A DNA stretch of 48,321 nt from Haploplasma modicum ATCC 29102 (GTDB taxonomy: Bacteria; Bacillota_I; Bacilli_A; Acholeplasmatales; Acholeplasmataceae). Position 1 is the first letter of the stretch, and each line of letters begins with the position of its first letter. The DNA is taken from the NCBI RefSeq assembly GCF_000687835.1, contig NZ_JHYB01000007.1, positions 1 to 48,321 of the forward strand. The letters run 5' to 3'. This document shows positions 1 to 36,942 of this stretch, piece after piece. A program made the translations under genes and the position numbers. The notes beneath the pieces were generated by a model, which made no database searches, had not been told where the DNA came from, and worked only from the letters and a program-made list of their open reading frames with translations.

Positions 1-291
<291 letters not shown>

Positions 292-10267: not shown

Positions 10268-10303
10268 AAAAATAAAAAACTAGCCACTAATTATGGCTAG
10301 TTA
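10268..10303 (-). terminator. folT terminator
   Basis: Stem AACTAGCCA with TGGCTAGTT around a short loop, followed by a T-rich run. The folT stop codon lies inside the stem. Confidence 0.85.
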
Positions 10304-10796
10304 AATATAGTTTTATTTTAACTGGTTCAATTAAAGCCTCAACTAGCAAGACTATAACTATTGTATTTGGAATTATTAGTCCAAGTCTAATTGGTAAATC
10401 AGCTAGTAATCCTACAAGAGATTTATGATAGTGAATATATAAACCAAATGAATTAATTATTGTTACCATTAGATATGTTAAGACAATAAACAAAGTTTTT
10501 TTCCAAATTTTACTATCTGGTTTTAAAAACAATGCTGGAAATATTCCCCACATCATTGATCCTAGTGAAAATATTGGAAAAAATGGAATTCCTGCAATTA
10601 GCACTGTAATTAAATCGGCTAAAAATGCAATAATTACACTATATTTAATTCCTAAAAATAAACCTATGATAATTATTGGTATGGCATAAAATGGTGTTCC
10701 TATTGTTGATATTGGAATAACTAGTTTAAAAACCATATCAATAATTACTGATAATGCTCCAAGTATTGATGCTAATACTATTTTCTTTAAATTCAT
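10287..10796 (-). CDS. folT: ECF transporter substrate-binding subunit for folate (FolT-like)
   Basis: A 169-aa protein of five or six hydrophobic helices, of the size and hydropathy of ECF S components. It would join a shared energising module (EcfA/A'/T, not in this window) to import a vitamin. Folate is assigned mainly because the upstream leader is a tetrahydrofolate riboswitch (10842-10928) and the neighbour trmFO consumes folate. ATG has a strong GGGAGG site nine bases upstream. Single-gene transcript with its own terminator. Confidence 0.85.
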   Translation of the reverse strand: MNLKKIVLASILGALSVIIDMVFKLVIPISTIGTPFYAIPIIIIGLFLGIKYSVIIAFLADLITVLIAGIPFFPIFSLGSMMWGIFPALFLKPDSKIWKKTLFIVLTYLMVTIINSFGLYIHYHKSLVGLLADLPIRLGLIIPNTIVIVLLVEALIEPVKIKLYLTSHN

Positions 10797-10841
10797 AAAA
10801 AAAGACCTCCCTTTTTAGAGATCCACTATAAAAAAATTATA

Positions 10842-10928
10842 CAGCGGACGCATTAGAAAACCGCCTTTTAAAGTTCGTTCTAACCCAACATCCCATGGAT
10901 AGACACTTAACGCTTTCTAACTACTCTG
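10842..10928 (-). promoter_or_regulatory. tetrahydrofolate (THF) riboswitch
   Basis: The minus strand carries the conserved blocks of the THF aptamer in order: AGAGTAG (5' arm), GCGTTAAGTG (10904-10913), GGGATGTTG (10886-10894), GAACGAA, GGCGG, and TGCGTCCGCTG at the 3' end. The length of about 87 nt fits the class. The aptamer ends about 45 bases before folT. No strong intrinsic terminator follows, so control is probably at translation through the GGGAGG site; this is inference. Confidence 0.9.
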
Positions 10929-10935
10929 ATAATTC

Positions 10936-34072: not shown

Positions 34073-34630
34073 CTATTTTTTACTCTTAATATTAAACATT
34101 CCAATAAATAATAAAATTGCTCCAATTGATAATAACGTTATTAGTGTTACTAATTTGATTTTTGCATCAACCATATTTGTTGCATATACGTATGTACCAA
34201 ATATAACAAACAATAAATTTAAGAAAAATAATCCACTTTTTAAATTAATTTTATTAAATACACCTAAGTATAACTCAATACTTCCACTTAAAACTAAAGC
34301 TAAACCAAACCAGAATGAACCACTTGAACTTATATCAATAAAGTTTATATTAACTTCAAATACTGGCAAAATAAACCCAACTATTGCTCCAAATAAAATT
34401 ATTACAGATTCTATCGTCCTAAGCGTAATAGCTGATTGATTTTTTTTATTTGTGTTTGGCAAAATTACAAATATTACAAATGCAATTAAACCAAACCCTA
34501 TTACTAATTTACCTACTTTATACGTTAGACTAAAAAATCCACTATCTACAAAATAAGAAACAATTGCATAGGCTAATATTAATACCCCTAATACAATTGA
34601 TAAAATCGGAACTTTTTTAAAAAAACTCAT
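34073..34630 (-). CDS. membrane protein, six predicted helices, function unknown
   Basis: 185 aa, almost entirely hydrophobic with about six helices (about 8-25, 38-57, 72-90, 103-122, 130-148, 160-178). The size and pattern recall HdeD-like or DUF308 proteins, but no diagnostic motif is visible. AAAGGAG lies upstream, just after the 6S-like RNA. Co-oriented with M42, 17 bases away, so likely one transcript. Confidence 0.75.
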   Translation of the reverse strand: MSFFKKVPILSIVLGVLILAYAIVSYFVDSGFFSLTYKVGKLVIGFGLIAFVIFVILPNTNKKNQSAITLRTIESVIILFGAIVGFILPVFEVNINFIDISSSGSFWFGLALVLSGSIELYLGVFNKINLKSGLFFLNLLFVIFGTYVYATNMVDAKIKLVTLITLLSIGAILLFIGMFNIKSKK

Positions 34631-34650
34631 ATTTTTCTCCTTTATATATT

Positions 34651-34800
34651 AAAAAAATCTTAGAGAGTCTGGTAAGAACGAAAGGTTTAAGGTGGGTATT
34701 TCCTTTTCTATAATTTGGGAATCATTTTCATGATTCAACGCCCTTATAGTTTAAATTCCCGTTCAATGATTTTGGGTTCTACAAACACTCCCTAAGACAC
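34651..34800 (-). ncRNA. candidate 6S RNA
   Basis: About 150 nt, not coding, with its own consensus promoter (34805-34833) and a terminator T run (34651-34657). The ends pair over 11 bp (787-797 with 658-668), then 7 bp (776-782 with 672-679, one bulge). A large symmetric bubble follows (about 14 nt each side: 761-775 and 680-693), then stems 753-760/694-701, 744-749/708-713 and 730-736/719-725, closing on a GAAA loop. (All positions are 34xxx.) A long rod with a central open bubble is the 6S design that mimics open promoter DNA. The identification is structural; no sequence match was tested. Confidence 0.72.
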
Positions 34801-34804
34801 TTAT

Positions 34805-34833
34805 AGATTATCACTTTAGACCTTTTTTGTCAA
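34805..34833 (-). promoter_or_regulatory. promoter of the 6S-like RNA
   Basis: -35 TTGACA (34828-34833), 17-bp spacer, -10 TAATCT (34805-34810). The perfect -35 is otherwise seen here mostly at rRNA and infC. Confidence 0.8.
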
Positions 34834-34843
34834 CAATCAAGGC

Positions 34844-36295
34844 TTAATAATAGACAGAAACTCTCACATAATTGCCTTTATTAATTAATAAATCTAATAA
34901 TAATTCTCTAGTTTTGGTTTCAATCAAGTAATCTATATTAGCCGTTCTAAAACTAATATTTACGGTATAGATACCATCTACTTCAAGTTCTGGAATTCTT
35001 GCTATGCTATAATTTGTTGTTAACGGTTTTAAGTCTTGCAGACTATTAAAATATGCTGTAATTGTAATAATAACACTTGTTTTAATTTGAAATTTTTTAA
35101 GTATTTCAGATAAATATAATGTTCTTGCAATTATATAGTTAGTATTATGATAAAATTCTTTTTCATATGTCACCTTTGACTTATCATCAGTAATGCTATA
35201 GGATACTTTTTCATTAAAACTATTTTCTAAATAAATTTTAAATTTTTCAATTTTCTTTTCTGTTCCATAGTGAAAATCAGTATAAATTGTTATATTATCC
35301 TCGTCGAATGTATATGCTGTTATAAAAAACTTCTTAAAATCAGCGTAGACAATAATGTCATGAAACTTCTTATCAAAATGCTGTTTATTTACTTTAAAAC
35401 TAAATTTTGTAGTTAGGCAAAAATTACTATTATATATATGTGGTTCAAATAACGCATTAGCATAGACACCTACATGTTTTTCTTGATCATAATAGTAATA
35501 ATATTCATAGACTATTCTACTTCTAAATGCGATATATTGATATATCGAATAAACTATTCCAAAGACAGTTACTACAATACCAATAATTAAACTTAAATAA
35601 CTAGGTTTTACTGATAAAAAGATTGTATAAATGATTGGTGGGAAAATAGATACAGTAAAGAAGTTAAACATTGATTGAAATCCTTTACGATAAAGAATAA
35701 TCGTTAATACTAATAAAACAACAACGCTATATGTTGAGGCAAAGAAGAGATGAATATCAAACATCTTTAATAAATTAATTAAATTATTTACTTCTCTTAT
35801 TAATAAAAAGATTGCAATCATCGCAAGCACAATCGTTAAAGCTTGTCTTAATTTTAAATAGTTAGGTTTTAAATATGTTTTTCTAACCTGAGGTAAGTGA
35901 TAATAATCTTTAACTTCTTTTCTATATTCATAATAGGCACTATACGATCCTTTAAAATAACTAATAAATGATTTTTCTTCAGGAAATTTCTGATCTACTA
36001 GTTTTTCTATTTCATGTAAAGGATTTAAAAACAAAATAAATGTTCCGACAAATATTAATGCCGTATCATATTCATTTAGGAAGACCAATAAAAGTGTAAT
36101 AAATATACTATATATTAATAAAACAACAAATTTACCAATCCCAAAAATTATGTAACTTAATAAATAAAATAATGCCACAAGAAAGACTGCAAGCATTATT
36201 CTTTGATAATTAATATCAGCTAAAAAAACACTTAAAAAAAAGAGTGTTGTTAAGATTATTAATGTTGTAATTAAAATAACAAGTCTTCTTTTCAT
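34844..36295 (-). CDS. large membrane protein, function unknown
   Basis: 483 aa. Two hydrophobic blocks of about four helices each (about 5-95 and 155-255) flank a Tyr-rich loop (FKGSYSAYYEYRKEV). The last 220 residues are soluble and mixed alpha/beta, with many aromatic residues and a run of five Tyr at about 265. No motif I recognise. AAGGAG lies before ATG. It follows the rplT terminator with no clear promoter of its own, so readthrough from the infC operon is possible. Confidence 0.75.
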   Translation of the reverse strand: MKRRLVILITTLIILTTLFFLSVFLADINYQRIMLAVFLVALFYLLSYIIFGIGKFVVLLIYSIFITLLLVFLNEYDTALIFVGTFILFLNPLHEIEKLVDQKFPEEKSFISYFKGSYSAYYEYRKEVKDYYHLPQVRKTYLKPNYLKLRQALTIVLAMIAIFLLIREVNNLINLLKMFDIHLFFASTYSVVVLLVLTIILYRKGFQSMFNFFTVSIFPPIIYTIFLSVKPSYLSLIIGIVVTVFGIVYSIYQYIAFRSRIVYEYYYYYDQEKHVGVYANALFEPHIYNSNFCLTTKFSFKVNKQHFDKKFHDIIVYADFKKFFITAYTFDEDNITIYTDFHYGTEKKIEKFKIYLENSFNEKVSYSITDDKSKVTYEKEFYHNTNYIIARTLYLSEILKKFQIKTSVIITITAYFNSLQDLKPLTTNYSIARIPELEVDGIYTVNISFRTANIDYLIETKTRELLLDLLINKGNYVRVSVYY

Positions 36296-36326
36296 TTTTC
36301 AGCTCCTTATACTTATATTATAAGAC

Positions 36327-36352
36327 AAAAGCGTGGAATTATCCACGCTTTT
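36327..36352 (-). terminator. terminator of infC-rpmI-rplT
   Basis: Ten-pair stem AAAAGCGTGG with CCACGCTTTT; the T tail is short (TTTTGTCTT), so some readthrough is likely. Confidence 0.75.
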
Positions 36353-36357
36353 AGTAA

Positions 36358-36726
36358 TTATTTACTTGCTTTAGCAATTGCATTTTGAGCTGTTTTAACA
36401 TACTCTGCAAAATGGTTTGGTTCGTTAACTGCAATATCAGCTAACATTTTACGGTTGATTACTACTCCCGCTAATGATAAACCATGAATTAATTGAGAAT
36501 ATTTCATATTGTGTAATTTTGATGCAGCGTTAATTCTTTGAATCCATAATTTTCTAAAGTCTCTCTTACGACGTTTACGGTCACGGTATGCATATGCATG
36601 TGATTTCATAACTTGTTCGTTTGCTGTTTTATATAATGTACCTTTTGATACGAAATATCCTTTAGCTTGTTTAATTATTTTTTTACGACGACGTCTTGTT
36701 TGGACTGTATTACTTACTCTAGCCAT
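36358..36726 (-). CDS. rplT: 50S ribosomal protein L20
   Basis: 122 aa, basic, with the typical opening ([23 protein letters not shown]). Binds 23S rRNA and, in relatives, its own operon leader. Last gene of infC-rpmI-rplT. Confidence 0.98.
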
Positions 36727-36741
36727 TTTATTCCCTCCTGA

Positions 36742-36942
36742 TTATAACATGTTTGAGATAAGGCGTTTGATTCTTTTTGCATCAGTATGGTCTACTAGTG
36801 TTTGGCCTCTCAATTGTCTATTTTGTTTTGTTGTTTTTGATTGTGCTAAGTGATTTTTAAAAGCGTGTCCTCTTTTTAATTTCCCTGTAGCTGTAACTTT
36901 AATACGTTTTTTTAAACCACTATGTGTTTTAGCTTTTGGCAT
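36742..36942 (-). CDS. rpmI: 50S ribosomal protein L35
   Basis: 66 aa, [20 protein letters not shown] at the start, as in all L35. It lies 18 bases after infC and 15 before rplT. Confidence 0.98.

What the first reader, a model, noticed from the sequence alone, without database searches (positions are those of the whole stretch)
34651..34833. Candidate 6S RNA gene with its own promoter and terminator
A non-coding 150-nt unit has a consensus promoter, ends that pair over 11 bp with a T run after, a large central bubble, and an apical GAAA-capped stem. That is the architecture by which 6S RNA traps the housekeeping polymerase. It is short for the class (usually about 180-200 nt). In a reduced, mollicute-like genome this would be a notable global regulator.
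Basis: partly seen in the sequence, partly recalled or inferred. Interest (0 to 1): 0.78.

Follow-up and report, generated by a model that had tools for sequence, protein, structure and literature searches.

The report
Short 6S RNA of Acholeplasma relatives
A 150-nucleotide RNA gene in a small wall-less bacterium is a real, family-wide version of 6S RNA, the RNA decoy that switches off the main RNA polymerase, and the standard database model for 6S fails to recognise it in this whole bacterial order.

Summary
On the minus strand at about 34802-34651 lies a 152-nt non-coding RNA gene with a -35/extended -10 promoter, a 12-bp closing helix running into a T tract, a second helix (P2), a large central bubble and a GAAA-capped apical arm. 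Rfam's 6S model matches it end to end, but only at 12.7 bits (cut-off 46.4). Comparative data settle the identity. A model of six relatives finds the RNA in 103 of 160 genomes of the order. Its pairing covaries strongly (155 double-sided changes against 44 in shuffles). A model built only from this family, searched over other families of the class, lands on the locus that Rfam's 6S model calls in 32 of 34 genomes where both report a match (21 over cut-off). Downstream genes differ between genomes, so it acts in trans. Most likely it binds the housekeeping polymerase as an open-promoter mimic and is released by product-RNA synthesis, predicted to start in the conserved GAACCC. Expression, polymerase binding and product RNAs are untested. 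It is a new member of a known family. New points: Rfam misses the whole order, phytoplasma-like genomes appear to lack it, and the window's own clade seems to have moved the partner of its release switch.

The parts
34828..34833 (-). -35 element TTGACA
   Evidence: read from sequence; position conserved as TTGACA/TTGACT/TTTACA in most homologues
34805..34813 (-). extended -10, TGA-TAATCT (17-nt spacer from the -35)
   Evidence: relatives read TGATAAAGT/TGATAAATT
34651..34802 (-). 6S-like RNA, about 148-152 nt; transcription start inferred at about 34801-34798, 3' end in the T run
   Evidence: R2 match 34801-34651, 120.3 bits, E 9e-27 (this copy was in the training set); Rfam RF00013 34802-34652, 12.7 bits
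34787..34798 (-). closing helix P1, 5' strand (GUCUUAGGGAGU)
   Evidence: fold; covariation helix 1, 95.5% of cells paired, 6 of 10 pairs with double changes
34657..34668 (-). closing helix P1, 3' strand, doubling as terminator stem
34651..34657 (-). terminator T run
   Evidence: T run conserved in the family
34776..34782 (-). helix P2, 5' strand GUAGAAC; with the following CC it is the predicted product-RNA template
   Evidence: helix 2; GAACC(C) invariant or nearly so in 45 homologues
34672..34679 (-). helix P2, 3' strand GUUCUUAC
   Evidence: helix 2; fold
34761..34775 (-). central bubble, 5' side, holding GAAC (34764-34761), the predicted alternative partner of the P2 3' strand
34680..34693 (-). 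central bubble, 3' side (begins in the conserved CCCAC)
   Evidence: aligned to the CCCACCU motif of the 6S model in homologue L005
34694..34760 (-). apical arm: helices P3, P4, GG/CC and GAAA-capped tip
   Evidence: helices 3-6; one pair shows GC12 UA10 AU9 CG7 GU6
34073..34630 (-). downstream membrane-protein gene starting 20 nt after the T run, Shine-Dalgarno AAAGGAG; no Pfam match (neighbour, not part of the RNA)

Best explanation
This is the ssrS gene: a short 6S RNA. Shown by sequence: it is a free-standing RNA gene with its own promoter and terminator, it is conserved over an order, it has the 6S rod with a central bubble flanked by P1/P2 and an apical arm, and it is homologous to 6S RNAs recognised by Rfam in other families. 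Inferred: the bubble mimics melted promoter DNA, so the housekeeping sigma-A polymerase binds it and is kept from promoters when nutrients run out. When nucleotides return, polymerase uses the 5' side of the bubble as template, probably starting at the CCC of GAACCC (predicted product RNA 5'-GGGUUCUAC...). The product RNA opens helix P2, the freed 3' strand (GUUC) pairs elsewhere, the RNA refolds and polymerase is released.
For: RF00013 aligns over its full length on this exact stretch, and at 21.8 bits on homologue L005 with the CCCACCU..GAAC and GUG..GCC..GGAAUCC motifs in register. R1 finds the RNA in 103 of 160 genomes of the order. RF00013 run independently on the same 160 genomes has 13 weak best hits, 9 of them on those same loci (against 28). 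R2, trained on Acholeplasmataceae only, hits 67 genomes outside the order; where RF00013 also calls, the locus and strand agree in 32 of 34, 21 of them over the gathering score. Locus L208 scores 43.5 bits with R2 and 48.1 (over cut-off) with RF00013 at the same coordinates. Covariation: 155 double-change cells against 44 +/- 6 in shuffles and 13-50 in slid structures. Promoter conserved. Downstream genes of at least seven unrelated kinds. The genome holds three sigma-70 region 2 proteins, one in a 416-aa frame, long enough for a housekeeping sigma.
Against: The window copy and every genome of the order fall below Rfam's cut-off (0 of 160). No transcript, polymerase-binding or product-RNA data could be examined. 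The single-sequence fold is only moderately stable for its composition.
Confidence: 0.93

Rival explanations
1. A cis-acting leader (riboswitch or attenuator) of the gene at 34630.
For: The gene starts 20 nt after the T run with no room for its own promoter, so it must be read from further upstream. A weak preQ1-II match covers part of the region (18.4 bits, cut-off 47).
Against: In homologues the downstream gene is an M42 peptidase (34), the membrane protein (10), a DEAD-box helicase (10), rsmD (7) or others. Many copies are followed by a separate promoter-like sequence. The RNA ends at its own terminator and is homologous to 6S. The preQ1-II match is far below cut-off and appears on none of the four homologous loci scanned.
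Confidence: 0.03
2. A 6S homologue that has kept the fold but binds core polymerase or another partner (as Ms1 RNA does) rather than the sigma-A holoenzyme.
For: Ms1 RNA is structurally related to 6S but binds the core enzyme (PMC9130861); binding specificity cannot be read from sequence.
Against: Here there is homology to 6S, not just resemblance of fold, with the promoter-mimic bubble and GAACC(C) conserved.
Confidence: 0.03
3. A chance hairpin in AT-rich intergenic DNA.
For: Fold z-score only -2.2; no Rfam match over cut-off.
Against: Homologues in 103 of 160 genomes and covariation beyond every shuffle.
Confidence: 0.005

Closest known systems
6S RNA (Rfam RF00013, SsrS), E. coli type
   Same: Homologous; P1, P2, central bubble, apical arm; CCCACCU..GAAC on the 3' side; in 31 of 45 family members the 3' bubble holds GAAC complementary to the P2 3' strand (expected 2.4), as needed for an E. 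coli-type release hairpin (mechanism in PMC8876501)
   Different: About 150 nt against 183 for E. coli ssrS; below Rfam's cut-off; the window copy itself lacks the 3'-bubble GAAC
Bacillus subtilis 6S-1 RNA
   Same: In the window's clade GAAC sits at the distal end of the 5' bubble and is predicted to pair with the freed P2 3' strand, like the central bubble collapse helix described for 6S-1 (PMC8876501). The known 6S-1 product RNA 5'-GUUCGGUC... (PMC12005410) is also read from a GAAC template
   Different: Shorter arms; predicted product RNA starts GGGUUC
6S RNAs of other families of the same class (e.g. L204/G322, L208/G415)
   Same: Hit by both R2 and RF00013 at the same coordinates, often 154-168 nt
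   Different: Score over Rfam's cut-off; sequence diverged outside the bubble and apical motifs
Ms1 RNA of Actinobacteria
   Same: Polymerase-binding RNA related in structure to 6S (PMC9130861)
   Different: No homology tested or suggested here

Membership tests
6S RNA | Covariance-model homology to known 6S RNAs | tested here: met
   Sub-threshold directly (12.7 bits), but the family model R2 and RF00013 agree on locus and strand in 32 of 34 outside genomes, and RF00013's weak hits in the order fall on these loci in 9 of 13 genomes
6S RNA | Rfam gathering score reached (a detection cut-off, not a property of the RNA) | tested here: not met
   12.7 against 46.4 bits; 0 of 160 genomes of the order
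6S RNA | Rod of closing helix, P2, large central bubble, apical arm, supported by covariation | tested here: met
6S RNA | Stand-alone transcription unit, trans-acting | tested here: met
   promoter and terminator in homologues; downstream genes vary; expression itself not seen
6S RNA | Usual length about 180-200 nt (typical, not defining) | tested here: not met
   152 nt; RF00013-called 6S RNAs of 154-163 nt exist in the same class, so this does not exclude membership
6S RNA | Binds housekeeping sigma-RNA polymerase holoenzyme | not testable with these tools
   needs pull-down or gel shift
6S RNA | Templates product RNAs that trigger release | not testable with these tools
   template site GAACC(C) conserved; refolding predicted when P2 is blocked
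6S RNA | Accumulates in stationary phase | not testable with these tools
   no expression data available here
Riboswitch/leader | Fixed association with one downstream gene or function | tested here: not met

The most novel reading that the evidence does not exclude
Within one family the 6S release switch changed its wiring. Most Acholeplasmataceae copies carry GAAC in the 3' bubble (E. coli-type release hairpin), while the window's clade lost it there and carries GAAC/GAAU at the end of the 5' bubble (B. subtilis-type collapse helix). The two known release mechanisms would then be interchangeable over short evolutionary distances. In addition, 6S was lost on the way to the phytoplasmas.
Probability: 0.4. 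Interest if true: 0.55.

Novelty: new member of a known kind. Interest (0 to 1): 0.45.

Why it matters
6S RNA is a global regulator of transcription. The standard model recognises it in none of 160 genomes of this order, so it will be missing from annotations based on that model; the alignment and model here would add it in at least 103 genomes. It shows that a small-genome Mollicutes lineage keeps the gene for an RNA polymerase decoy, marks phytoplasma-like genomes as probable losses, and offers a natural comparison between the two known ways of releasing 6S from polymerase.

Tried and rejected
Rfam at gathering threshold: nothing at the locus. Plasmid collection by BLAST: no match. RF00013 in the own genome at E 0.001: none. 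A preQ1-II riboswitch reading was rejected (18.4 against 47 bits, absent from homologues). tRNA/tmRNA: none. The idea that the B. subtilis-type collapse helix is a family-wide feature was tested and rejected: 3 of 45 copies form at least three such pairs when P2 is blocked, and its sequence is confined mainly to the window's clade. The local promoter/terminator scanner missed both elements, because the -10 is weak and the terminator stem is the long-range closing helix. R2 found nothing at E 0.01 in the named Listeria, Enterococcus, Paenibacillus or Priestia genomes, so it reaches neighbouring families only. Four of RF00013's 13 weak hits in the order are not on R1 loci and are probably chance.

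Full report
The feature. On the minus strand, -35 TTGACA (34833-34828), a 17-nt spacer and an extended -10 TGA-TAATCT (34813-34805) precede an RNA of about 150 nt that ends in a T run at 34657-34651. It lies between a 483-aa membrane-protein gene ending at 34844 and a 185-aa membrane-protein gene starting at 34630, both on the same strand and both without Pfam matches; further downstream is an M42 peptidase. The fold has a 12-bp closing helix, a second helix P2 (GUAGAAC/GUUCUUAC), a large central bubble and an apical arm with a 7-bp GAAA-capped tip. Taken alone the fold is only moderately unusual (z -2.2).

Rfam. At gathering thresholds nothing is reported at the locus. With permissive filters RF00013 (6S) aligns over its full length to 34802-34652 at 12.7 bits, E 1.9 against all 4227 families on 301 bases. 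That is not proof, but it is the only family that spans the unit.

Conservation. BLAST finds homologues in near relatives, each with its own promoter and terminator. Model R1 from six of them matches 103 of 160 genomes of the order, nearly always once per genome. Seventy copies were aligned; most have a TTGACA-like element, about 17 nt and a TGATAAA-like -10. On 45 copies the 36 pairs are formed in 92.0% of cells (82.9% in shuffles), with 155 cells changed on both sides against 44 +/- 6; sliding the partner by 1-3 columns drops pairing to 29-49%. One apical pair shows GC12, UA10, AU9, CG7 and GU6. RNAalifold on the same alignment recovers P1, P3, P4 and most of the GG/CC pairs on its own, but not P2. 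P2 therefore rests on the named structure: 93% of cells paired, with double changes in two of its seven pairs. P2 may be under-predicted in free folds because its 3' strand has competing partners.

Identity. RF00013 run over the same 160 genomes gives no match over its cut-off and 13 weak ones; 9 of these lie on R1's loci (G037, G067, G041, G009, G032, G013, G118, G133, G020). R2, built only from the 45 Acholeplasmataceae copies with P2 included, was searched over 296 genomes of the class and compared with RF00013 on the same set. Outside the order R2 hits 67 genomes. In 34 of them RF00013 also has a match, and in 32 it is the same locus and strand, 21 over the gathering score. Locus L208 is a bridge: 43.5 bits with R2, 48.1 bits (over cut-off) with RF00013, same coordinates. 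Two independently built models converging on the same places in whole genomes is homology, so I file it as 6S although the window copy misses Rfam's cut-off, which is a detection threshold and not a defining property.

Not a leader. The gene after the RNA is an M42 peptidase in 34 genomes, the membrane protein in 10, a DEAD-box helicase in 10, rsmD in 7, and other genes in the rest (the helicase and rsmD are named from my reading of the translated starts). In the window the downstream gene probably depends on read-through of the 6S terminator; this is an inference from the 20-nt gap.

Mechanism (inferred from 6S biology). 6S mimics an open promoter, sigma-A polymerase binds it, and product-RNA synthesis opens P2 and releases it (PMC12005410, PMC8876501). 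GAACC(C) at the P2/bubble junction is invariant or nearly so here, and the B. subtilis product RNA begins GUUC (PMC12005410), i.e. is also read from a GAAC template. A product RNA starting GGGUUC is my prediction. When the P2 5' strand is blocked in silico, the window RNA refolds so that the 5'-bubble GAAC pairs with the freed GUUC. In 31 of 45 copies the complement of that strand lies instead in the 3' bubble (2.4 expected), as in the E. coli-type hairpin; in the 5' bubble it is found in five copies (1.5 expected), four of them the window, G001, G002 and G014. Because those four are near relatives, this may be a single event, and it rests on prediction only.

Distribution. The g7 genomes listed (0.3-0.9 Mb, the size and place of phytoplasmas; identification inferred) have no match, nor has the named Ca. 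Phytoplasma pruni genome (G432). Named genomes with it include Acholeplasma sp. AS08sgBPME_69 and several Acholeplasmataceae and Acholeplasmatales assemblies. Searches of the held papers found no report of 6S RNA in Acholeplasma; key surveys such as Barrick 2005 are not held, so priority is not claimed.

Verdict.

Noticed in passing
window 10840-10930 (-): THF riboswitch over Rfam's cut-off (65 bits), just upstream of an ECF-transporter substrate-binding gene (10287-10796, PF12822; probably folate) and a trmFO-like gene. Ordinary.
   Followed up: partly
window 34630-34651: The downstream membrane gene has a Shine-Dalgarno but only 20 nt to the 6S terminator, so it probably depends on read-through.
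   Followed up: partly
window 34844-36942 and homologous loci: In one large group of genomes the 6S gene follows the same membrane-protein gene as in the window, where rpmI-rplT lies just upstream of that gene; in L186, L188 and L190 the RNA directly follows rplT.
   Followed up: partly
33 class-level genomes outside the order (e.g. G247, G265, G241): R2 finds 6S-like loci where the filtered RF00013 genome search is silent; rescanning L221-L223 gives RF00013 33-38 bits at the same places, so Rfam under-calls 6S in this class too.
   Followed up: partly
window 1-290 (-): Start of a 16S rRNA gene at the contig edge.
   Followed up: no
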